Assembly: GCA_015661825.1 (NCBI GenBank)
Contig: DQVI01000135.1
Span: 1-62,785, forward strand
Length of the DNA stretch: 62,785 bases
DNA from: Novosphingobium capsulatum
GTDB lineage: Bacteria; Pseudomonadota; Alphaproteobacteria; Sphingomonadales; Sphingomonadaceae
Reading direction: 5' to 3'
Shown: positions 1,889 through 59,978 of the stretch, piece after piece
Numbering within the stretch: the first letter of the stretch is position 1
Layout: each line of letters opens with the position of its first letter
The notes under the pieces: generated by a model
Seen by the model: only the letters and a program-made list of their open reading frames with translations
The model's database searches: none
Told to the model about the DNA's origin: nothing
Translations under genes and position numbers: made by a program

Positions 1889-3088
1889 TCAGCGCAGCGA
1901 GACCACGTTGTCGCTCAGGCGCAGGCCACGGCGGCTGCCGTTGTACTGGCTGGACATCGGCTCGTCGGTGACAGTGTAGGTTTCCACCGCCTCGAAACCG
2001 TTGAATGCGGTCTTCATCGCCGCACCATAGGCGCCGAGCATGCCGATCTCGATGTAGTCGCCGGCGCGTGCATCGGCGGGCAGCGGGAACGGACCTTCCA
2101 TGAAGTCCATGTCGTCGCAGGTCGGGCCATAGAAGCTGAAATCAGCCATTTCACCCGCTTCGATCACCTCCCCATCGCGCATCAGGCGCACGGGGAAACG
2201 CCAGCCGACATGGGCCGCATCGAACAGGGCGCCATAGGCACCATCGTTGATGTACAGTTCGTTCTCGCGGCGCTTTTCGACGCGCACGATGATCGAGTTG
2301 TATTCGGCGCACAGCGCGCGGCCCGGCTCGCACCAGAGTTCGGCCGAGTAGGACACCGGCAGCGACTCATAGGTCCGGTCGATCAGCGCGAAGTAGTCTT
2401 CGAGCGGCGGAGGCTCCATGCCCGGATAGACCGACGGGAAGCCGCCGCCGACATCGATGATGTCGACCGTGACGGCCGCATCGACGATCGCCGCGCGCGC
2501 CTTTTCGAGGGCCAGCACATAGGCATGCGGGCTCATCGCCTGGCTGCCGACGTGGAAGCACACGCCAAGGCTGTCGGCGAGCTGGCGGGTCTGCTGGAGC
2601 AGCTCGCGCGCATCGACGAGGTCGCAGCCGAACTTGGAAGCGAGGCTCAGCTCGGAATGCTCCGAAGAGACGCGCAGGCGCACGCAGAGCGTCAGATCCT
2701 GTGCGCCATCGGTCGCTTCGCGGATCTTTTCCAGTTCGTCGAGCGAATCGAGGCTGAACGTGCGCACGCCGTAGGTCTTGTAGGCCTCGGCAATGGCGCG
2801 CGGCGCCTTGACCGGGTGCATGAAGCACAACGTGGCTTCGGGCAGGACCGAGCGCACCAGACGCACTTCGGTGATCGAAGCGACATCGTAATGGGTGATA
2901 CCGGCGTCCCAGAGCACGCGCAGAAGGTCAGGAGAAGGGTTCGCTTTCACCGCATAGAGCGACTTGCCCGGAAACTTCTCGACAAAGAAGCGGGCTGCGC
3001 GCGCGGCTGCATGCGGGCGGTTGAGAATGGCGGGTTGGTCAGGCGCGGTGGCGCGAACTACAGCCCGTGCATCAAGATAATTGTGCAA
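1889..3088 (-). CDS. Ornithine (or lysine/ornithine) decarboxylase, alanine racemase-fold type
   Basis: A group IV (fold III) PLP decarboxylase that removes CO2 from ornithine to give putrescine. Family motifs are all present: the PLP lysine in YAVKANP (K48 from the chosen start), HVGSQ, the glycine-rich DVGGGFP, CEPGR for phosphate binding, and the YGPTCDxxD segment carrying the active-site Cys from the partner subunit. The chosen TTG at 3088 gives 399 residues and a homologue-like N-terminus (HNYLDARAVVRA). The frame stays open to another TTG at 3196, so the start is not certain. It is the third gene in a row with a carboxyspermidine dehydrogenase and decarboxylase, which would use its putrescine. 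Substrate choice between ornithine and lysine cannot be read by eye. Confidence 0.88.
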   Translation of the reverse strand: MHNYLDARAVVRATAPDQPAILNRPHAAARAARFFVEKFPGKSLYAVKANPSPDLLRVLWDAGITHYDVASITEVRLVRSVLPEATLCFMHPVKAPRAIAEAYKTYGVRTFSLDSLDELEKIREATDGAQDLTLCVRLRVSSEHSELSLASKFGCDLVDARELLQQTRQLADSLGVCFHVGSQAMSPHAYVLALEKARAAIVDAAVTVDIIDVGGGFPSVYPGMEPPPLEDYFALIDRTYESLPVSYSAELWCEPGRALCAEYNSIIVRVEKRRENELYINDGAYGALFDAAHVGWRFPVRLMRDGEVIEAGEMADFSFYGPTCDDMDFMEGPFPLPADARAGDYIEIGMLGAYGAAMKTAFNGFEAVETYTVTDEPMSSQYNGSRRGLRLSDNVVSLR

Positions 3089-3327
3089 CTCAAGGGACCC
3101 CCAAACAAAACGTGGAACGAAAAGCTGCCTTGCGGTTTGGAAGTCCCCATGGGGCAGCGAGGAAGCGCTAAATAGGGCCGGTGGAACGAAGTTCAAGCGA
3201 AAAAATCACGGCTTCACAAATCTGTCACATTGCAGGCCGCGCCCCGGCGCGCACATGCCCCGTCCGGGCGCAGAAACGGCCCCCGAACGACACGACAGGA
3301 TCATGATTCAAAACAAAATTACTGAAA

Positions 3328-4527
3328 TTATCCGAGGCGGTCGCGGAAATCCTCGTAGGCGAAAGTCCGCAGGCATTCGAGCGTGTCGGTCGCACTGTCC
3401 CAGAGCCAGATCGAAGGCAGCGGCACCCCGTTGAAGGTGGTGGTCTTGACCATCGAGTAATGGGCCTGATCAAGGAAGGCGAACCGCACGCCCGGCTCGG
3501 CGCGAACCGGCAGGCGGTAGTCGCCGATCACGTCGCCCGCCAGACACGAAGGCCCGCCCAGACGCACCGGCGCATCGGCGCCATCGGTGCCCTCGTATTC
3601 GTCGATGGGCCGCTCGCCGAGCATGGCCGGACGATAGGGTGCCTCGATGACGTCGGGCATGTGGCAGGTCGCCGAAATGTCGGTGATGGCGATGTCCATG
3701 CCGTTCCAGTGCCGGTCGAGCACGGTGCCCACGAGGATGCCCGCGTCGAGCGCGACGGCCTCGCCCGGTTCGAGATAGATCTCGCAGCCGGTTTCCGCCT
3801 TTACCGCCTTGAGGAAGGCGACCAGATCGTCGCGCTGGTAGTCGGCGCGGGTCACATGGTGGCCACCGCCAAAGTTGAGCCACTTGAGCTGGCCGAAGAA
3901 CGGCGCAATGCGGGGCTTGAGGGCCTCCCACGTGCGTTCCAGCGGCTCGAAGTCCTGCTCGCACAGCGTGTGGAAATGCAGGCCCGAGACGCCTTCGAGG
4001 TGTTCCGGCGTCAACTGGTCGACCGGGAAGCCGAGGCGCGAATGGGGCGCGCAGGGGTCGTAGCGCGGCACTTCGCCTTCGGCATGGAGCGGGTTGATCC
4101 GCAGGCCCACGTCGAACACCTTGCCCGCCGCGCGCGCGGCGGCCAGCTCGGGCGCGAAGCGTGCGATCTGGAACGGCGAATTGAAGATCACATGGTCGGA
4201 CAAGTCGAGGATCTCGGGCAGATCCTCGCCCTTGTAGGCCGCGCAATAGGTCGCGATCTCGCCCCTGTAATGCTCGGCAGCAAGCTTGGCCTCCCACAGG
4301 CCCGACGTGCACACCCCGTCGAGATAGTCCCCGACGATCGGCGCGACCTTCCACATCGAGAAGGCCTTGAGCGCGCTGAGCACCTTGATCCCGGCCCGGT
4401 CGCGGATGTCGGCCAGAACCGCCAGATTGCGGCGCAGGGCCTGAACGTCGACGACGAACGAGGGGCTGTCGACGCGCGACAGGTCGAAATGGGCAAAGGC
4501 GCCCGGATCACCGGCTCTGGTTTCCAT
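3328..4527 (-). CDS. nspC: Carboxynorspermidine/carboxyspermidine decarboxylase
   Basis: A 399-residue fold III PLP decarboxylase that converts carboxyspermidine (or carboxynorspermidine) to spermidine (or norspermidine). The PLP lysine is in LSALKAFS (K54). The family-typical CTSGLWEAKLA, HFHTLCEQ, NFGGGHH, LEPGEA and DISATCHMPDV segments are all visible. The start is the ATG at 4527; the frame extends upstream to 4629 without family resemblance. It lies 162 nt after the dehydrogenase gene that supplies its substrate and 239 nt before the putrescine-forming decarboxylase gene, all on the minus strand, so the three probably form a spermidine operon. Confidence 0.93.
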   Translation of the reverse strand: METRAGDPGAFAHFDLSRVDSPSFVVDVQALRRNLAVLADIRDRAGIKVLSALKAFSMWKVAPIVGDYLDGVCTSGLWEAKLAAEHYRGEIATYCAAYKGEDLPEILDLSDHVIFNSPFQIARFAPELAAARAAGKVFDVGLRINPLHAEGEVPRYDPCAPHSRLGFPVDQLTPEHLEGVSGLHFHTLCEQDFEPLERTWEALKPRIAPFFGQLKWLNFGGGHHVTRADYQRDDLVAFLKAVKAETGCEIYLEPGEAVALDAGILVGTVLDRHWNGMDIAITDISATCHMPDVIEAPYRPAMLGERPIDEYEGTDGADAPVRLGGPSCLAGDVIGDYRLPVRAEPGVRFAFLDQAHYSMVKTTTFNGVPLPSIWLWDSATDTLECLRTFAYEDFRDRLG

Positions 4528-4689
4528 GGGAGGCGAGGCCTTTCGGGAGAGATGCAAGAGAGGGGTCTTGAAACGACGGACGCCAGCCCCGCAAGGACTG
4601 CGGAAAGCCGGCGCCGGATACTTTGCCATATCGGCCCCCGCTGCCCTCCCTGCAAGGGACGGGCAACGGATGGCCTCAGAACCGCAGGA

Positions 4690-5895
4690 TCAGAATTCCA
4701 GCGGCCCGGCCAGTTCCTTGACCTGCCAGGGCAGGCCATGGGCATTGAGCATGTCCATGAACGGATCGGGATCGAGCTGTTCGATGTTGAACACGCCCTC
4801 GCCCTTCCACAGGCCCTGCACGACCAGCGCCGCGCCGATCATCGCGGGAACGCCGGTGGTGTAGCTGACGGCCTGGTTGCCGGTTTCGGCGAAGGCGTCT
4901 TCGTGGTCGCAGATGTTGTAGATGTAGAAGGTCTTCTCCACCCCATCCTTGGTGCCCGTGGCGATGTCGCCGATGTTGGTCTTGCCCTTGGTGGTGGCGC
5001 CCAGCGAGGCAGGCTCGGGCAGGACGGCCTTGAGGAACTGGAGCGGGATGATCTCCTTGCCCTCGTAGATCACCGGGTCGATGCGGGTCATGCCCACGTT
5101 CTGGAGCACGGTGAGGTGGGTGATGTACGCATCGCCAAAGGTCATCCAGAAGCGGATGCGCTCGATCTCGGGCAGGTGCGTCTTGAGGCTTTCGATTTCC
5201 TCGTGATACATCAGGTACATGTTCTTGGGGCCAACGGCCTCGAAATCGAACTGGTGGCGGATCGTGAGCGCCGGGGTTTCCACCCATTCACCGTTGAGCC
5301 AGTGGCGCGCGGGCGCGGTCACTTCGCGGATGTTGATTTCGGGGTTGAAGTTGGTGGCAAAGTGCTGGCCATGGTCGCCGCCGTTACAATCAAGAATGTC
5401 GAGCGTCTTGATCGTGTCGAGCTTGTGCTTCTTGAGCCAGGTGGCGAAAACCGAGGTCACGCCCGGATCGAAGCCCGAGCCGAGCAGGGCCATCAGGCCC
5501 TTTTCCTTGAAGCGTTCCTGATAGGCCCACTGCCACTTGTATTCGAACTTGGCTTCTTCGCGCGGTTCGTAGTTGGCGGTGTCCATGTAGTTGACGCCAG
5601 CGGCAAGGCAGGCGTCCATGATCGTCAGATCCTGGTAGGGCAGCGCGAGGTTGACCACCAGCACGGGCTTGACCTCGTTGATCAGCGCGGTCGTCGCGGC
5701 CACGTCGTCCGCGTCGATCTGGTAGGTCGCCACGTCGACCCCGGTGCGTTCCTTCACCGAGGCGGCGATTGCGTCGCACTTGCTCTTGGTGCGGCTGGCA
5801 AGGGCGATGCCGGTAAAGATATCGGCATTCATCGCCATCTTGTGAACCGCAACCGAGCCGACGCCACCGGCACCAATCACAAGAACCTTTGCCAT
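4690..5895 (-). CDS. Carboxyspermidine dehydrogenase (saccharopine dehydrogenase family)
   Basis: An NAD(P)H-dependent enzyme that reductively joins L-aspartate beta-semialdehyde to putrescine (or diaminopropane), giving carboxyspermidine (or carboxynorspermidine). The 401-residue protein starts MAKVLVIGAGGVG, a Rossmann nucleotide loop at residues 8-13. The ATG at 5895 has GGAG 5 nt upstream. The length and the adjacent nspC fit carboxy(nor)spermidine synthase better than lysine-forming saccharopine dehydrogenase or the longer homospermidine synthase. It is the first gene of the putative polyamine operon and is transcribed away from btaA. Confidence 0.92.
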   Translation of the reverse strand: MAKVLVIGAGGVGSVAVHKMAMNADIFTGIALASRTKSKCDAIAASVKERTGVDVATYQIDADDVAATTALINEVKPVLVVNLALPYQDLTIMDACLAAGVNYMDTANYEPREEAKFEYKWQWAYQERFKEKGLMALLGSGFDPGVTSVFATWLKKHKLDTIKTLDILDCNGGDHGQHFATNFNPEINIREVTAPARHWLNGEWVETPALTIRHQFDFEAVGPKNMYLMYHEEIESLKTHLPEIERIRFWMTFGDAYITHLTVLQNVGMTRIDPVIYEGKEIIPLQFLKAVLPEPASLGATTKGKTNIGDIATGTKDGVEKTFYIYNICDHEDAFAETGNQAVSYTTGVPAMIGAALVVQGLWKGEGVFNIEQLDPDPFMDMLNAHGLPWQVKELAGPLEF

Positions 5896-6181
5896 CGTCA
5901 CTCCATCATCCATCAAAACAGGGGGAATATCCCGCCGATCCTGCCACAGGACCGCGGAGGTTTCATGGGAACGCCCATAAGCCAAGCCCCCTTAATCCAA
6001 GCCCATGACAAACCCAAGACCCTTGTGACCCGCTGCGCGCCCCGCAACGCGCCCCTGCCCCTGTTTTGGCGAAATAGATGGGGAAAGCTCTCCATGCCCA
6101 CCCCGGCCACAATTGCCACAATCCCGCAATGCCACGCGCGTAAAGCAGCGCCCATCGATACGCATGGGAAGTCCACAGACC
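5896..6181. promoter_or_regulatory. Divergent promoter region between the polyamine operon and btaA
   Basis: These 286 nt separate two divergent operons and must hold both promoters. No clear promoter elements stand out. One PHO-box-like half-site (ATGACAA, 6005-6011) is present, but no second half at the 11-nt spacing a PHO box needs. Confidence 0.45.
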
Positions 6182-7426
6182 ATGGAATTGCGCAAGAAGT
6201 CCAAGCCCGAAGCCGCTGCTGAGCATTCTCCTCTCGTGCGCTCGGTCGTGCGCAAGGGGGCGGGCATGGCGAACCGTCTGCTCGACCACACGTTCGCGCT
6301 CGCGTTTCGCGGCCTTGTCTATGCCCAGATCTGGGAAGACCCCGAAGTCGACATGGAAGCCTTGCAGATTCGCCCCGACAGCCGCGTCGTGGCCATCGCC
6401 AGCGGCGGGTGCAACGTGCTGTCCTATCTGGTCGCCGACCCGGCCAGCATCACCGCGGTCGATCTCAACACCGCGCATATCGCGCTCAACAAGCTCAAGC
6501 TGGCCGCAGCCCAAACCCTGCCCGACCATGCGCAGTTCCACCGCTTCTTCGCCCAGGCCGACAGCCCGGCCAATATCGCGACCTATCGCGCCAAGCTCGC
6601 CCCCCTGCTCGACGAACCGACGCGCCGCTATTGGGAAGGGCGCGACCTGATCGGGCGGCGGCGCATCGGCGGGTTCTCGCGCGGGATCTACAAGCGCGGG
6701 CTGCTGGGCAATTTCATCGGCGTGGCGCACCTGCTCGCGCGGCTCTACCGGATCGATCTCGCGCGCATTCTGGCCGCGCCCACGCTCGAAGCCCAGCGCG
6801 CGGTGTTCGAGGCCGAACTGGCCCCCGTCTTCGACAAGCGCTTCGTGCGCTGGCTGACCGACCAGCCCGCCTCGCTGTTCGGGCTGGGCATTCCCCCGGC
6901 GCAGTTCGATGCGCTGGCGGGCGACCAGCGCATGGCGCAAGTCCTGCGCCGCCGCCTCGAACGGCTCGCCTGCGATTTTCCCGTGGCCGAAAACTATTTC
7001 GCCTGGCAGGCTTTTTCGCGCGGCTATGCCCGTGACGGGCAAGGCCCCCTGCCCCCCTATCTCCAGCGCGCCAACTGGCAGGCCGTGCGCGAGCGCGCGT
7101 CGCGGGTGCAAGTGATCCACGCCAATTTCACCGAGCATCTGGCCACCCTGCCCGATGCCTCGCGCGACCGCTATGTCCTGCTCGACGCGCAGGACTGGAT
7201 GACCGACGCCCAGCTCAACGCGCTCTGGCAGGAAATCACCCGCACGGCCCGGCCGGGCGCGCGCGTGCTATTCCGCACCGCCGCCCAGCCCAGCCTGCTG
7301 CCCGGACGCCTCGCGCCCGAGCTGCTCGCCCGCTGGCGCTACCATGCCCGCGAATGCGAAGGGTTCACCGCGCGCGACCGCTCCTCGATCTATGGCGGCG
7401 TCCACCTCTACAGCCTCATCCCATGA
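6182..7426 (+). CDS. btaA: S-adenosylmethionine:diacylglycerol 3-amino-3-carboxypropyl transferase
   Basis: BtaA (DUF3419 family) moves the aminocarboxypropyl group of SAM onto diacylglycerol to make diacylglyceryl-homoserine, the first step to the betaine lipid DGTS. The 414-residue length matches Rhodobacter BtaA. Family segments include the N-terminal YAQIWEDPEVD, the SAM-site-like ASGGCNVLSYL followed by AVDLNxAH, and the C-terminal LLDAQDWM and RTA motifs. The ATG at 6182 begins the MELRKK start; a second ATG lies 18 nt upstream in frame. The gene overlaps btaB by 4 nt (ATGA), so the two are translationally coupled. BtaA acts at the inner membrane on diacylglycerol. Confidence 0.93.
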   Translation: MELRKKSKPEAAAEHSPLVRSVVRKGAGMANRLLDHTFALAFRGLVYAQIWEDPEVDMEALQIRPDSRVVAIASGGCNVLSYLVADPASITAVDLNTAHIALNKLKLAAAQTLPDHAQFHRFFAQADSPANIATYRAKLAPLLDEPTRRYWEGRDLIGRRRIGGFSRGIYKRGLLGNFIGVAHLLARLYRIDLARILAAPTLEAQRAVFEAELAPVFDKRFVRWLTDQPASLFGLGIPPAQFDALAGDQRMAQVLRRRLERLACDFPVAENYFAWQAFSRGYARDGQGPLPPYLQRANWQAVRERASRVQVIHANFTEHLATLPDASRDRYVLLDAQDWMTDAQLNALWQEITRTARPGARVLFRTAAQPSLLPGRLAPELLARWRYHARECEGFTARDRSSIYGGVHLYSLIP

Positions 7427-8091
7427 CATCGGCCCCCACCAAAACCGGCGCACAGACCAGCGGCGCGCATGCCGCGCTGATGGACGCGATCTATCGGCGT
7501 CAGGCGCGCATCTATGACGTGACGCGCAAGTACTACCTGTTCGGGCGCGACCGGATGATCGGCGAACTGAAAGCGCCGCCGGGCGCACGCGTGCTCGAAC
7601 TGGGTTGCGGAACGGGGCGCAACCTGGCCCAGATCGCCCGCGCCTGGCCGGGCACGCGGCTGCATGGGCTGGATATTTCGCCCGCCATGCTCACCGTCGC
7701 GCGCGACAGGCTGGGCGGGCGGGCACGGCTGGCGCAGGGCGACGCCACCGATTTCGCGCCCCAGGCCCTGTTCGGGTGCGACACGTTCGACCGCGTGGTC
7801 TTCTCGTTCGTGCTCTCGATGATCCCCGACTGGCCCGGCGCGCTCGCACAGGCGATCCGGGTTCTGGCGCCGGGCGGGGCGATCCACATCGTCGATTTTC
7901 ACGATTGCCAGGGCCTGCCCGGCCCGCTCGCGCGGCTGCTGCGCGCGTGGCTCGCGCATTTTCATGTTACCCCGCGCCTGACACTGGCCGACGAAGCGCG
8001 GGCGCAGGCGGCACAGGCAGGCCTCGCCTTGCGGGTCATCACCGGCCCGCTCGGCTACTACCGGCTGATCATGCTCACCCGCGCGGGGTGA
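7423..8091 (+). CDS. btaB: Diacylglyceryl-homoserine N-methyltransferase
   Basis: BtaB adds three methyl groups from SAM to diacylglyceryl-homoserine to finish DGTS. The 222-residue class I methyltransferase has the SAM-binding motif VLELGCGTGRN at residues 57-67 and a GLDIS acidic loop after it. A conserved lead region (DAIYRRQARIYDVTRKYYL) precedes the fold, as in characterised BtaB proteins. The start codon sits inside the btaA stop (ATGA). A generic methyltransferase label would be safe from sequence alone; the coupling to btaA makes BtaB very likely. Confidence 0.92.
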   Translation: MTSAPTKTGAQTSGAHAALMDAIYRRQARIYDVTRKYYLFGRDRMIGELKAPPGARVLELGCGTGRNLAQIARAWPGTRLHGLDISPAMLTVARDRLGGRARLAQGDATDFAPQALFGCDTFDRVVFSFVLSMIPDWPGALAQAIRVLAPGGAIHIVDFHDCQGLPGPLARLLRAWLAHFHVTPRLTLADEARAQAAQAGLALRVITGPLGYYRLIMLTRAG

Positions 8092-52458: not shown

Positions 52459-55233
<2,775 letters not shown>

Positions 55234-55237
<4 letters not shown>

Positions 55238-56898
55238 GCCTGTTCCAGCAAACGGTCGGCCTGGGCGCGGGCCTCGTCGGTGACTTCGGCGCCCGAAAGC
55301 ATCCGCGCGATTTCTTCCTTGCGTTCGCCCTTGTCGAGCATCGTGACAGCCGTGCGCGTGACCGTCCCCTCGCTCGACTTGGCGATCAGGAAATGGGCGC
55401 CCCCGCGCGCGGCCACTTGCGGGCTGTGGGTCACGGCGAGCAGTTGCCCGCCCTGTGCCAGCCGGGCGAGGCGTTCGCCGATGGCGCTGGCCACGGCGCC
55501 GCCCACCCCCCGGTCGATCTCGTCGAAGATGACCGTGGCAGCGCCGCCTTCCTCGGCCAGCGCGACCTTGAGCGCGAGAATGAAGCGCGACAATTCACCC
55601 CCCGAAGCGATCTTGCCCAGCGGGGCGAAATCGCTGCCCGGATTGGTCGAGATCAGGAATTCGACACCATCGACACCCTGCGGCCCCCAGCGATCCTCGG
55701 GCAGGCGGACGACAGCGGTGTGGAAGCGCGCTGCATCGAGCCGCAGCGGCGCCAGTTCGGCGGCCACCGCCTTGTCGAGCCGCCGCGCGGCCTCCGCGCG
55801 CTGGACCGAGAGCGTCTCGGCCTTGGCGCGATAATCGAGCCCGGCATCCATGGCCTGACGGGCCAGCCCTGCGATCCGCGCCTCGCCGCCCTCGATGGCG
55901 TCGAGCGCGGTCTGCAAGGCCTCGCGCCGGGCGGGCAGTTCGTCGACCGTGCAACCGTGCTTGCGTGCGGCGGCGCGCAAGTCGAACAGGCGGGTCTCGA
56001 TCCGGTCGAGCAGGGCGGGATCGTGGGCCAGCGCCTCGGCAGCGGCGGCCAGCTTGTCTTCGGTCTCCCCCGCTTCGATGATCGCGCGGTCGAGCGCTTC
56101 GAGCGCCTCGGTCAGCAACGGATGTTCGCCCGCGATCCGGTCGAGCCGCCGCGCCGCGCTGCGCAAGGCGTCCAGCGGCGAATCCGGGCCCGACCAGACC
56201 TGATCGAGCGCGGCCAGATCGCCCGAGAGCCGCTCGCCCTTCTGCATGCCCGAGCGCTGGAGCGCGAGGTCTTCCTCCTCCCCCGGCTTGGGGGCGAGGC
56301 TGTCGAGTTCGGCAAGGTGCGCGGTGATCAGGTCCTGTTCGGCCACGGCGGCTGCCAGATGGGCGCGGGCCTGTGCCAGCGCGGTTTCCGCCTTGCGCCA
56401 TATCTCCCACGCAGACTGGACCGCGGCGCTTTCCGCGCGGGCATAGCGGTCGAGCAGCAGGCGGTGTCCGCGCGCGTTGACCAGCCCGCGATCGTCGTGC
56501 TGGCCGTGGAGTTCGACAAGGAAGCGCGCCAGATCGCGCAGCAGCGCGACGCCCACGGGCTGGTCGTTGATCCACGCCCGGCTTCCCCCGTCGGCCTTGA
56601 GGCGGCGGCGGATGAGCAGCGGTTCGCCCGCCTCCCACGCGATTTCGGCCTCTGAGAGCAGGGCGGCGACGCCTTCGGGCCGCACGGCGAATTCGAAAGT
56701 GGCGGTCACGCTCGCCTGATCAGTGCCTGTGCGCACGAGGCCGCTGTCGGCCCGGTCGCCCAGAATCAGCCCCAACGAATCCAGCAGGATCGATTTGCCC
56801 GCCCCGGTCTCGCCGGTGAGAACGCCCAGACCGCCCGGAAATGCGAGGTCGAGCGCCTCGATCAGGACGACATTACGGATGGAAAGCCCGGTCAGCAT
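55234..56898 (-). CDS. recN: DNA repair protein RecN
   Basis: An SMC-like ATPase of double-strand break repair. The 554-residue protein has Walker A GETGAGKS (29-36), a long central coiled coil (about 150-370), the signature SGGELSRFILALK and Walker B TVIFDEIDRGVGG. It starts at the ATG at 56898. It leads a unit with the GNAT gene and ligA. A near-match to the LexA box lies 44 nt upstream. Confidence 0.95.
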
Positions 56899-56941
56899 TC
56901 GATTGTGTCTAATGCCTGCGCGGCTCCGCGTCACCCCCAAT

Positions 56942-56970
56942 GTTCACGTCTTGTTTCACATTGGTGACAC
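56942..56970. promoter_or_regulatory. Candidate LexA-like and PHO-box-like sites between recN and plcP
   Basis: GTTC-ACGTCTT-GTTT (56942-56956) matches the GTTC-N7-GTTC LexA box except for the last base, 44-58 nt before recN. Overlapping it, GTTTCAC-ATTG-GTGACAC (56953-56970) has the 7+4+7 spacing of a PHO box, with 4 and 5 of 7 bases matching CTGTCAT/CTGTCAC, about 72 nt before the phosphoesterase gene. Both calls are weak pattern matches; at most one may be real. Confidence 0.3.
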
Positions 56971-57042
56971 TCTGTCGCGTCCACGCAACCTGAGGGGCCT
57001 ATCAGAGTCGGAACGCAACCGCGGCAGGAAGGGGCGCCGGTC

Positions 57043-57978
57043 ATGGAAAACGTGGGAAAGACACCCGGTAACATGCTGGAAAACGGCAAATTGGCACCGA
57101 TGAGCGAGTGGATCAAGGGCCTCCCCGAATGGCTCGATCTGCCCGAACCGCGCGGATTTCGCCCCAAGCGCCGGGTCCGCACGGTGTGGATCTCGGACCT
57201 TCACCTCGGCACGCGCGGCTGCAATGCGCAGATGCTGCTCGATTTCCTGGCCTCGATCGAATGCGAGACGCTCTATCTCGTGGGCGACATCGTCGATGGC
57301 TGGCGCCTCTCGCGCGGGTGGTACTGGCCCGACGCGCACAACGAAGTCGTCCGCCGCGTGCTCAAGATGGCCCATCGCGGCACCCGTGTCGTGCTGATCG
57401 CGGGCAATCACGACGAAATGCTGCGCCCTTATGCGGGGATGACCTTCGGCGGCGTCGAACTCGCGCTCGACACCATCCATGTCACCGCCGACGGGCGCCG
57501 CCTGCTGGTCACCCATGGCGACGGGTTCGACGGGGTGGTGCTTTATGCTCGCTGGCTCGCCTTTCTGGGCGATGCGGCCTACGAAGTGCTGCTCAAGGCC
57601 AATCGCTGGGTCAATCTGGTCCGCCGCCAGTTCAAGCTGCCCTACTGGTCGCTGTCGGCCTACATGAAGAAGCGCGTGAAGAACGCCGTCCAGTTCATCT
57701 GCGACTTCGAGGAAGCCGTGGCCCATGCCGCGCGCGACATGGGGGTCGACGGGGTGGTCTGCGGCCACATCCACTGCGCCGAAATTCGCCAGATCGGTGA
57801 CGTGACTTATTACAACGACGGCGACTGGGTGGAAAGCTGCACCGCGCTGGTCGAGGACTTCTGCGGGGCGATGAGCATCGTCGACTGGGCCGCCGAACAG
57901 GCCCGGCTGAACCCGGCGCCCGTTGCCCAGACCGAGCCAGCCGCCCTTCCCGTTCCGCAGGCTGAACCGGTCGCATGA
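57043..57978 (+). CDS. plcP: PlcP-like metallophosphoesterase (phospholipase C of lipid remodelling)
   Basis: A 311-residue calcineurin-type phosphoesterase with all metal motifs: ISDLHLG (50-56), VGDIVDGW (80-87), AGNHDE (120-125), THGDGFD and CGHIHCAEI. Segments such as WYWPDAHNEVV, FGGVE, ARWLAFLGDAAYE and GDWVESCTALVE are like Sinorhizobium PlcP, which cuts phospholipids to diacylglycerol under phosphate starvation. Databases often label such proteins UDP-2,3-diacylglucosamine diphosphatase (LpxH); no lpx genes are seen here. AGGAAGGGG lies 8 nt before the ATG. The glycosyltransferase gene follows after 10 nt. Function is inferred from resemblance and pairing. Confidence 0.68.
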   Translation: MENVGKTPGNMLENGKLAPMSEWIKGLPEWLDLPEPRGFRPKRRVRTVWISDLHLGTRGCNAQMLLDFLASIECETLYLVGDIVDGWRLSRGWYWPDAHNEVVRRVLKMAHRGTRVVLIAGNHDEMLRPYAGMTFGGVELALDTIHVTADGRRLLVTHGDGFDGVVLYARWLAFLGDAAYEVLLKANRWVNLVRRQFKLPYWSLSAYMKKRVKNAVQFICDFEEAVAHAARDMGVDGVVCGHIHCAEIRQIGDVTYYNDGDWVESCTALVEDFCGAMSIVDWAAEQARLNPAPVAQTEPAALPVPQAEPVA

Positions 57979-57988
57979 GGCCTGTCAC

Positions 57989-59074
57989 ATGAGAATCGCG
58001 ATCTGCACCGATGCCTGGCACCCGCAAGTCAACGGCGTGGTCCGCACGCTCTCGACGACGGTGGCCCTGCTGCGCGCACGCGGGCACGAGGTCTGCCTCG
58101 TCACGCCCGAACAGTTCCGCACGCTGGCCCTGCCCGGCTACAGCGAGATCCGCCTTGCCATGGCCCCGCGTTTCGGCACGCGGCGCATCTTGCGCGCCTT
58201 TGCGCCCGACATCGTCCATATCGCCACCGAAGGGCCGATCGGCTGGGCCGCGCGCAGTTGGTGCAAGGCCGAAGGGATGCCGTTTACCAGCGCGTTCCAC
58301 ACCCGTTTCCCGGATTATGCGGCGATGCGCACCGGGCTCAGCCCCGAAGCGTTCTGGCCGGTCATGCGGCGGTTTCACGCGCGCAGCAGCGCGGTTCTGG
58401 TCGCCACGCCCAGCCTTGCGGCGGAACTGGCCGGGCATGGCCTGTGCCAGACGCGGTTGTGGTCGCGCGGGATCGAGCCTGCGCAGTTCCGCCCCGCCCT
58501 CACGCCCGAACGCGCAGGCACGCCCTGGGCCGACCTGCCGGGGCCCCTGCTGCTCTATGTCGGGCGCGTGGCGGTCGAGAAGAACCTCGGCGCATTCCTT
58601 GAGGCACCCGTTGCCGGAACCAAACTGGTTGTCGGCGACGGGCCCGACCTCGCCATGCTCAGGGCCCGCCATCCCCAAGCCCTGTTTGCCGGGGCCATGG
58701 CAGGCGAAGACCTCGCCCGCGCCTATCGCGCCGCCGATTGCTTCGTGTTCCCCAGCCGGACCGACACCTTCGGGCTGGTGATGATCGAGGCCATGGCCTG
58801 CGGGGTGCCGGTCGCGGCCTTCCCGGTGCCCGGCCCGCTCGACATCGTGGGCCCACAGGGGCGTGGCCCGTTCGGCACGCTGGCCTCGCCGGTCGGCATG
58901 CTCGACGAGGACCTGCCCCGCGCCATTGCCGGGGCGCTCGCCTGCGACCGCGCCGCCGTCGCCGCCCACGGGGCCAGCTATTCGTGGGAGGCGGCGACTG
59001 ACCAGTTCGAGGCCGCTCTGCGCGATGCGGTCGAGACATGGGCCCGAACGAACTGGGCGATCATGGCGGCCTGA
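57989..59074 (+). CDS. GT4 family glycosyltransferase, probable diacylglycerol glycosyltransferase (Agt-like)
   Basis: A 361-residue GT-B fold transferase. The N-terminal acceptor domain starts MRIAICTDAWHPQVNGVVRTL, typical of lipid mannosyl/glucuronosyl enzymes. The donor domain has LLYVGRVAVEKNL and the GT4 motif FVFPSRTDTFGLVMIEAMACGVPV. It begins 10 nt after plcP, the plcP-agt arrangement known from phosphate-starved Alphaproteobacteria, where Agt makes glucosyl- or glucuronosyl-diacylglycerol. Sugar donor cannot be told by eye; a PimB-like or other lipid glycosyltransferase remains possible. Confidence 0.72.
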   Translation: MRIAICTDAWHPQVNGVVRTLSTTVALLRARGHEVCLVTPEQFRTLALPGYSEIRLAMAPRFGTRRILRAFAPDIVHIATEGPIGWAARSWCKAEGMPFTSAFHTRFPDYAAMRTGLSPEAFWPVMRRFHARSSAVLVATPSLAAELAGHGLCQTRLWSRGIEPAQFRPALTPERAGTPWADLPGPLLLYVGRVAVEKNLGAFLEAPVAGTKLVVGDGPDLAMLRARHPQALFAGAMAGEDLARAYRAADCFVFPSRTDTFGLVMIEAMACGVPVAAFPVPGPLDIVGPQGRGPFGTLASPVGMLDEDLPRAIAGALACDRAAVAAHGASYSWEAATDQFEAALRDAVETWARTNWAIMAA

Positions 59075-59109
59075 GTTGCCCGATCCCTGATCCGGTACAG
59101 CAGACACGA

Positions 59110-59140
59110 AAAACGGCGGGACCGCTGGCCCCGCCGTTTT
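59110..59140. terminator. Bidirectional terminator between the glycosyltransferase gene and bamD
   Basis: An 11-bp stem AAAACGGCGGG/CCCGCCGTTTT (59110-59120 with 59130-59140) has A and T runs in its arms and serves both convergent genes. Confidence 0.85.
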
Positions 59141-59168
59141 GCATGTCTGCTCTGGCAAAGCGCCCGGA

Positions 59169-59978
59169 TCAGGCTGCCGAGAGCTTGTCACCCTTGGCGT
59201 TCACCAGCTTGAACGCGCGCTTGTACCATTCGCTGCCCGGATAGTTGTGGCCCAGCACGGCGGCGGCGCGGTGCGCTTCCTCGGGAACACCGAGCGCCAG
59301 ATAGGCTTCGACCAGACGGAACAGCGCCTCGGGCGTGTGGCTGGTGGTCTGGTACTTGTCGACCACCACGCGGAAGCGCAGGGCGCTGGCCAGCCACTTG
59401 CCGCTGCGTTCGTAGAAGCGGCCCACTTCCATTTCCTTGCCCGCGAGGTGATCGTTCACGAGGTCGATCTTCATGCGCGCGTCGGTGGCGTAGTCGGTGT
59501 TGGGATAGCGGCGCATCACTTCGGTCAGCGCGGTGAGCGCCTGCTGGGTGATCTTCTGGTCGCGGGTCACGTCGCTGATCTGCTCGTAATAGCATAGCGC
59601 GACGAGGTAATAGGCGTAAGGCGCGTCCTTGTTGCCCGGATGGATCGACAGGAAGCGCTGCGCGGTCTGGACCGACTTGGCATAGTCGCGCGCGACGTAA
59701 TAGCTGAACGCGCCCATCAGCTGGGCCCGGCGCGCCCAGGGCGAATAGGGGTGCTGGCGTTCCACTTCGTCGAAAAGGGCGGCGGCCTGCTTGGCGTCGC
59801 CATGGTCGAGCCGGTCCTTGGCCGTCATGTAGAGCGTGTCCACGTCGCGTGCGACATAGGCCACGTCCTTCTTGGTCTTGCCCGCACCGGCGCAGCCGGC
59901 GGTCAGGCCCAGAGCGGCGGTAGCGGCGGCAAGAACGGCGATGCGCAGCGGGCTGCGGCCAGAAGCAGGAACGGTCAT
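59169..59978 (-). CDS. bamD: Outer membrane assembly lipoprotein BamD
   Basis: A periplasmic lipoprotein of the BAM complex that inserts outer-membrane beta-barrels. The 269-residue protein has a lipobox LTAGC with Cys29 and about five TPR-like repeats, including LYMTAKDRLDHGDAKQAAALFDE and HPYSPWARRAQLMGAFSYY. All fit BamD. In many Alphaproteobacteria bamD is followed directly by recN and ligA; here plcP and the glycosyltransferase lie in between on the other strand. Confidence 0.95.
   Translation of the reverse strand: MTVPASGRSPLRIAVLAAATAALGLTAGCAGAGKTKKDVAYVARDVDTLYMTAKDRLDHGDAKQAAALFDEVERQHPYSPWARRAQLMGAFSYYVARDYAKSVQTAQRFLSIHPGNKDAPYAYYLVALCYYEQISDVTRDQKITQQALTALTEVMRRYPNTDYATDARMKIDLVNDHLAGKEMEVGRFYERSGKWLASALRFRVVVDKYQTTSHTPEALFRLVEAYLALGVPEEAHRAAAVLGHNYPGSEWYKRAFKLVNAKGDKLSAA

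What the first reader, a model, noticed from the sequence alone, without database searches (positions are those of the whole stretch)
6182..8091. A betaine lipid operon and a PlcP-Agt pair in the same window: a full phosphate-sparing lipid module
btaA-btaB (6182-8091) makes DGTS from diacylglycerol. The phosphoesterase/glycosyltransferase pair at 57043-59074 looks like plcP-agt, which in Sinorhizobium, roseobacters and SAR11 generates diacylglycerol from phospholipids and glycosylates it when phosphate is short. Together they would let the cell swap phospholipids for DGTS and glycolipids. Sphingomonads already have glycosphingolipids in place of LPS, so a further set of phosphorus-free lipids is notable. 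The two loci are 49 kb apart, so the functional link is inference.
Basis: partly seen in the sequence, partly recalled or inferred. Interest (0 to 1): 0.72.

Follow-up and report, generated by a model that had tools for sequence, protein, structure and literature searches.

The report
Phosphorus-free membrane lipid genes, sphingomonad

Summary
btaA (6182-7426) and btaB (likely start 7423) match the DGTS genes; plcP (57043-57978) and agt (likely start 57989, end 59074) match PlcP-Agt. All 37 BtaA-positive family genomes have PlcP (142 of 199 overall); in the class, 21 of 23 with full-length BtaA. Pho boxes recur upstream of both genes in relatives, though the window's own sites are weak. The genome has PhoB beside a pst-type operon. 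The 49 kb spacing is incidental. Novelty is low: Erythrobacter sp. NAP1, also Sphingomonadales, has plcP-agt and accumulates DGTS, MGDG and GADG on phosphate starvation (PMC4796936). Verdict: a well-supported new member of a known kind, in a Novosphingobium-like sphingomonad.

The parts
6182..7426 (+). btaA: SAM:diacylglycerol 3-amino-3-carboxypropyltransferase (DUF3419), 414 aa
   Evidence: PF11899 E 6.5e-115; 56.9% identical to S. meliloti BtaA over two joined pieces, 61% over the best piece; 85% to Novosphingobium pokkalii
7423..8091 (+). btaB: diacylglycerylhomoserine N-methyltransferase, 222 aa, start overlapping the btaA stop (ATGA)
   Evidence: Methyltransf_25 E 4.2e-20, scanned from the longer ORF start; 51% identical to the methyltransferase behind btaA in S. 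meliloti; next to btaA in 79 of 80 named loci, the 80th contig ending about 100 bases after btaA
57043..57978 (+). plcP: PlcP-type metallophosphoesterase (phospholipase C acting on phospholipids to give diacylglycerol)
   Evidence: groups with S. meliloti PlcP, 100/100 apart from 20 LpxH; SDLHLG, GDIVDGW, GNHDE, HGD, GHIH motifs; 57% identical over 244 positions to the P. aeruginosa protein encoded before a glycosyltransferase gene
57989..59074 (+). agt: GT4 glycosyltransferase, presumed diacylglycerol glycosyltransferase, 361 aa
   Evidence: PF13439 E 7.3e-23, scanned from the longer ORF start; 48% identical over 344 positions to the glycosyltransferase behind plcP in P. aeruginosa; adjacent to plcP in 59 of 60 loci
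6005..6022 (-). weak Pho-box-like site upstream of btaA (10 of 14 consensus bases; 12.3 bits)
   Evidence: strand and position differ from the usual site of relatives; 8 sites of at least 12.3 bits occur in the whole window, so not significant alone
56953..56970 (-). weak Pho-box-like site upstream of plcP (12.5 bits)
   Evidence: same caveat

Best explanation
A standard phosphate-starvation lipid-remodelling set in a Novosphingobium-like sphingomonad. When phosphate is short, PhoB switches on plcP-agt and btaAB. PlcP removes the phosphorylated head groups of phospholipids and leaves diacylglycerol; BtaA adds the aminocarboxypropyl group of SAM to diacylglycerol and BtaB methylates it three times, giving the betaine lipid DGTS; Agt adds a sugar (glucose and/or glucuronic acid) to diacylglycerol, giving glycolipids. 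Phosphate is freed and the membrane keeps its bulk. Shown here: gene identities by homology, pairing, absence of an LpxC match, co-occurrence, PhoB, Pho boxes in relatives. Inferred from characterised relatives: the enzyme activities, the sugar, and regulation in this strain.
For: DUF3419 E 6.5e-115 and adjacent BtaB. PlcP: tree 100/100 apart from LpxH with S. meliloti PlcP on its side; 26 of 26 rows of that side read GNHD and 20 of 20 LpxH rows GNRD, the Arg being peculiar to LpxH (PMC5016852, passages); LpxC found in 0 of 199 family genomes while the control rings in E. coli and Caulobacter. Agt next to plcP in 59 of 60 loci and 48% identical to the P. aeruginosa one. BtaA-positive genomes with PlcP: 37 of 37 in the family, Fisher p 8e-7 by genome and 0.0014 by genus; 21 of 23 with full-length BtaA in the class, p 5e-8. 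Pho boxes: best site of 11 or more of 14 bases upstream of btaA in 22 of 81 regions against 18 of 810 shuffles, mostly on one strand and close to the start; upstream of plcP 23 sites of 11 or more in 60 regions against 1.15 per shuffled set. PhoB over its cut-off in the own genome, with a 17.1-bit Pho box near the pstS start. Erythrobacter sp. NAP1 makes DGTS, MGDG and GADG on starvation.
Against: No lipid data for this organism. The window's own Pho-box-like sites are weak and on the opposite strand to most of those in relatives. 105 of 142 PlcP-positive family genomes lack BtaA, so PlcP-Agt does not need BtaAB. Two class genomes (G371, G428) have full-length BtaA without a PlcP match, and four more (G338, G375, G387, G471) with weak or partial DUF3419 matches have none either, so counting every match it is 21 of 27. 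One plcP locus (L060) has no agt behind it. The co-occurrence tests are not corrected for shared descent beyond counting by genus. PlcP and Agt substrates are carried over from relatives at 48-57% identity.
Confidence: 0.92

Rival explanations
1. The phosphoesterase is an LpxH (UDP-2,3-diacylglucosamine pyrophosphatase) of lipid A synthesis, as the records of its relatives are annotated.
For: NCBIfam LpxH models are the best hits (49.2 and 45.1 bits); plasmid records of relatives carry that name.
Against: Far below both curated cut-offs (134 and 190 bits); LpxC found in 0 of 199 family genomes, this one included; tree and GNHD/GNRD residue; S. meliloti PlcP scores equally low on LpxH (38.9 and 38.1 bits).
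Confidence: 0.02
2. The two loci are separate: BtaAB is constitutive or answers another stress, and its nearness to plcP-agt in this window is accidental.
For: About 50 kb apart here and 63 kb in G111; in the other 35 BtaA-positive family genomes over 100 kb apart (14) or on different contigs (21); weak own Pho boxes.
Against: 37 of 37 co-occurrence; Pho boxes upstream of btaA in relatives; plcP about 125 bases before the btaA match in class genome G368 and about 1.1 kb before it in G464, same strand; in Phaeobacter MED193 a plcP deletion abolishes DGTS (PMC4796936).
Confidence: 0.07
3. Agt in sphingomonads glycosylates ceramide (glycosphingolipid synthesis) rather than diacylglycerol.
For: The family makes glycosphingolipids (recalled) and the Agrobacterium Agt is called promiscuous (PMC4796936 passage).
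Against: PlcP, whose gene is paired with agt in 59 of 60 loci, has no match in 57 of 199 family genomes, whereas glycosphingolipids are held to be general in the family (recalled); Erythrobacter NAP1, with agt behind plcP, makes MGDG and GADG.
Confidence: 0.08

Closest known systems
Erythrobacter sp. NAP1 lipid remodelling (Sebastian et al., PMC4796936; passages read)
   Same: Sphingomonadales; plcP followed by agt; DGTS, MGDG and GADG increase on phosphate starvation
   Different: a marine Erythrobacter, not a Novosphingobium-like organism; the passages I read do not give its btaAB locus
Sinorhizobium meliloti PlcP and BtaAB (record CP090106)
   Same: PlcP 48.5%, BtaA 56.9%, BtaB 51% identity
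   Different: plcP near AHL synthase and LuxR-type genes and followed by an MFS gene, no annotated glycosyltransferase beside it (that gene table is incomplete)
Pseudomonas aeruginosa PlcP-Agt1 (PA3219-PA3218; PMC8528852, abstract and passages)
   Same: same gene pair and order; 57% and 48% identity to a plasmid-borne copy that I take to be its equivalent
   Different: the passages seen concern glycolipids, not DGTS; a gammaproteobacterium with LpxH and lipid A
Phaeobacter sp. MED193 plcP-btaA-btaB (PMC4796936)
   Same: DGTS made in dependence on PlcP
   Different: btaA and btaB downstream of plcP there, two distant loci here

Membership tests
BtaA/BtaB DGTS synthesis | full-length DUF3419 protein | tested here: met
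   PF11899 positions 6-383 of 385, E 6.5e-115
BtaA/BtaB DGTS synthesis | BtaB methyltransferase directly behind btaA | tested here: met
   ATGA overlap (sequence); 51% to the S. meliloti protein in that place
BtaA/BtaB DGTS synthesis | DGTS produced | not testable with these tools
   needs lipidomics
PlcP | groups with characterised PlcP apart from LpxH | tested here: met
   tree of 46 rows, 100/100 split; several LpxH rows, L207 and the Thioclava row have long branches, this row does not
PlcP | dinuclear metal ligands of metallophosphoesterases | tested here: met
   SDLHLG, GD, GNHD, HGD and GHIH all present
PlcP | phospholipase C activity | not testable with these tools
   needs assay
Agt (GT4 diacylglycerol glycosyltransferase) | GT4 gene directly behind plcP | tested here: met
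   met in the window; 59 of 60 loci
Agt (GT4 diacylglycerol glycosyltransferase) | acceptor diacylglycerol, donor UDP-glucose or UDP-glucuronate | not testable with these tools
   only 48% identity to the P. aeruginosa relative
PhoB regulon | Pho box in the promoter | tested here: inconclusive
   clear in relatives, weak in the window
LpxH | score over curated cut-off and Arg in GNRD | tested here: not met
   49.2 of 134 and 45.1 of 190 bits; GNHD
LpxH | lipid A pathway present (LpxC) | tested here: not met
   LpxC found in 0 of 199, own genome included

The most novel reading that the evidence does not exclude
Because these bacteria have no LpxC match and so presumably no lipid A phosphate, PlcP with BtaAB and Agt could make an envelope almost free of phosphorus in both membranes, glycosphingolipid outside and DGTS plus glycosyl-diacylglycerol elsewhere, a lower phosphorus quota than LPS-bearing bacteria can reach; and in this family DGTS synthesis would depend wholly on PlcP-made diacylglycerol, explaining why BtaA was not seen without PlcP (37 of 37).
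Probability: 0.2. Interest if true: 0.55.

Novelty: new member of a known kind. Interest (0 to 1): 0.3.

Why it matters
It suggests that phosphate-sparing lipid remodelling is common in sphingomonads, including genera such as Novosphingobium, Sphingobium and Sphingomonas, many of whose members are not marine (recalled). Relatives of this PlcP carry the name of the lipid A enzyme LpxH in plasmid records, although LpxC was found in none of the 199 family genomes searched. Polar-lipid descriptions of these genera, often with unidentified aminolipids or glycolipids (recalled), become testable.

Tried and rejected
LpxH identity: rejected. Physical linkage of the two loci as evidence: rejected, since they are far apart in other genomes. 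A direct Pho box in the window: scanned by consensus and by a matrix from relatives; only weak sites on the opposite strand. No solved-structure relative of BtaA at E 0.01. A metabolic link of btaAB to the neighbouring polyamine genes: considered, looked at in three loci only, where the intervening genes differ; a conserved chromosomal position is the simpler reading. Structure prediction was not used because sequence evidence sufficed. Literature searches; of what was listed I opened passages of four papers (PMC4796936, PMC9239053, PMC8528852, PMC5016852), and only PMC4796936 bore on the order; supplements were not readable.

Full report
What is there. The window is contig C104 of a 3.53 Mb, 246-contig genome, 98% complete. 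The nearest named relative by BtaA is Novosphingobium pokkalii, 85% identical, and the next three rows are Novosphingobium too, so I call it Novosphingobium-like. btaA (6182-7426) is a full-length DUF3419 protein (E 6.5e-115). The mechanical ORF for btaB starts at 7354, but the ATG at 7423 shares ATGA with the btaA stop, and the product is 51% identical to the methyltransferase behind btaA in S. meliloti. plcP (57043-57978) is a calcineurin-like phosphoesterase and agt a GT4 glycosyltransferase whose likely start is 57989, not 57923.

Are the pairs real? In 80 named loci brought in by BtaA, BtaB lies next to BtaA in 79; the remaining contig (L142) ends about 100 bases after btaA. In 60 plcP loci (30 from the family search, the window's own included, and 30 from genomes behind named loci), agt lies next to plcP in 59. 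The exception, L060 of the fragmented genome G190, has 1500 bases behind plcP without agt and, by eye, an amidohydrolase-like gene on the other strand there.

Is it PlcP or LpxH? The best NCBIfam hits are the LpxH models, at 49.2 bits against a cut-off of 134 and 45.1 against 190; S. meliloti PlcP scores just as low, 38.9 and 38.1. LpxC, the committed step of lipid A synthesis, matches in 0 of 199 family genomes including this one, while the same search rings in E. coli and Caulobacter. In a tree of 46 proteins, 20 LpxH (E. coli and the 19 over the curated cut-off among 80 genomes) are split 100/100 from 26 PlcP-side proteins that include the window, S. meliloti PlcP and the P. aeruginosa protein. 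Of the 11 below-cut-off loci, 8 were used. Several LpxH rows, L207 and the Thioclava row have long branches; the window row does not. Okada et al. (PMC5016852, passages) state that only LpxH has Arg where other metallophosphoesterases have a catalytic His. All 20 LpxH rows read GNRD and all 26 others GNHD. The window and E. coli LpxH align over 122 residues at 30%. The S. meliloti gene lies near an AHL synthase and a LuxR-type gene, which fits the sinI/sinR neighbourhood of SMc00171 that I recall for the characterised PlcP; its record is labelled pSymB but is 3.7 Mb.

Agt. It is 48% identical over 344 positions to the glycosyltransferase behind plcP in P. aeruginosa; the PlcPs there share 57% over 244. 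In that species PA3219 is named as the phospholipase, and PA3218 expressed in E. coli gave MGDG (PMC8528852, abstract and passages). The sequence I compared is from a plasmid, and I infer from the pair and its order that it corresponds.

Do the two loci belong together? DUF3419 is in 37 of 199 family genomes and the PlcP query matches in 142 of 199 at E 1e-5 (the 142 include one fragmentary match, G159, and one split gene, G007). All 37 are among the 142 (Fisher 8e-7 by genome, 0.0014 by genus with 22 of 22 against 74 of 96). Of the 142, 105 lack BtaA. In a separately drawn set of the class, 27 of 231 genomes match DUF3419, 25 of them over the cut-off. I counted the 23 with a full-length match: 21 have PlcP at E 1e-20, against 89 of 231 overall (p 5e-8; without the own family 19 of 21, p 3e-7). 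The exceptions are G371 and G428. The four left out (G338, G375, G387, G471; weak or partial) have no PlcP match either, so counting every match gives 21 of 27. In G368 the plcP match ends about 125 bases before the btaA match, and in G464 about 1.1 kb before it, same strand. I also gave 50 of the 80 named loci to a PlcP search, mostly isolates rather than MAGs; 49 genomes were held and 49 of 49 had PlcP, one of them only in part at a contig end. At least some of these are the same genomes as in the family set. None of these tests removes shared descent altogether. The distance of about 50 kb means little: it is 63 kb in the congener G111, and in the other 35 BtaA-positive family genomes it is over 100 kb (14) or the genes are on different contigs (21). 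One congener, G172, lacks both.

Regulation. I scored the 18-base Pho box upstream of btaA in 81 regions (80 named loci and the window): 22 regions have a best score of 11 or more of 14, against 18 of 810 dinucleotide shuffles. Sites of 10 or more number 76 on the sense strand 15-95 bases before the aligned start, 10 on the other strand there, and 13 elsewhere; that stretch was chosen. Upstream of plcP, 60 regions hold 23 sites of 11 or more against 1.15 per shuffled set, 52 of the 76 sites of 10 or more being on the sense strand. So Pho boxes are enriched in both promoters across the family. The window is a weak case: its best sites, 12.3 bits before btaA and 12.5 before plcP, are on the opposite strand, and 8 sites of at least 12.3 bits occur in the whole window. 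The own genome has PhoB over the curated cut-off; by eye from the translations it lies in a run of phoR, pstS, pstC, pstA, pstB, phoU and phoB, with a 17.1-bit Pho box some 50-85 bases before the likely pstS start, so the system itself appears to be there.

How it works. PlcP strips phospholipids to diacylglycerol; BtaA and BtaB turn it into DGTS; Agt glycosylates it. In Phaeobacter MED193 a plcP deletion abolished DGTS and complementation restored it (PMC4796936). Activities in this organism are inferred.

Is it new? No. The same paper reports DGTS, MGDG and GADG rising in phosphate-starved Erythrobacter sp. NAP1, with agt behind plcP, and NAP1 is in Sphingomonadales. My searches found one paper that holds both 'betaine lipid' and 'Novosphingobium', on the alga Nannochloropsis by its title; searches listed nothing on betaine lipids in that genus that I could recognise from titles and abstract starts. 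The library lacks most subscription journals.

Genomic setting. casdh (carboxynorspermidine synthase), nspC and an ornithine-decarboxylase-like gene lie divergently beside btaAB here and, within the DNA held, in 60, 58 and 54 of 80 loci, with differing genes in between in the three loci looked at. I read this as an old chromosomal position, hence mostly vertical inheritance with losses, not as a functional link; no gene tree was made to test that. In 8 of 60 plcP loci, none of whose genomes is among the 37 with DUF3419, a BtaB-like methyltransferase gene is divergent from plcP; two of the eight were scanned, and their best NCBIfam hit is PmtA (125 bits, below the cut-off of 390).

Noticed in passing
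1889-5895 (-): Ornithine-decarboxylase-like, carboxynorspermidine decarboxylase (nspC) and carboxynorspermidine synthase genes lie divergently beside btaAB and keep that place in 54, 58 and 60 of 80 named sphingomonad loci.
   Followed up: partly
52459-59978: plcP-agt sits between recN and bamD (ligA, GNAT, recN, plcP-agt, bamD). In other alphaproteobacteria I recall lpxC near bamD-recN; here no LpxC match was found in the genome.
   Followed up: no
L042, L043, L046, L048, L053, L056, L057, L058: A BtaB-like methyltransferase gene, PmtA-like in the two scanned, is divergent from plcP in 8 of 60 loci, suggesting a phosphatidylcholine-PlcP tie in sphingomonads without BtaA.
   Followed up: partly
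L209: Three P. aeruginosa plasmid records match PlcP; the one that was read carries the plcP-glycosyltransferase pair and looks like a chromosomal stretch on a plasmid.
   Followed up: no
L062, 5001-6148: In S. meliloti Ak57 btaA matches in two pieces and is unannotated; its record is labelled pSymB but is 3.7 Mb.
   Followed up: no
G172; G371; G428: A congener (G172) lacks both BtaA and PlcP matches; two class genomes (G371, G428) have full-length BtaA without a PlcP match, so another diacylglycerol source may serve them.
   Followed up: no
L060, 501-2838: In genome G190 plcP is followed not by agt but, by eye, by an amidohydrolase-like gene on the other strand.
   Followed up: partly
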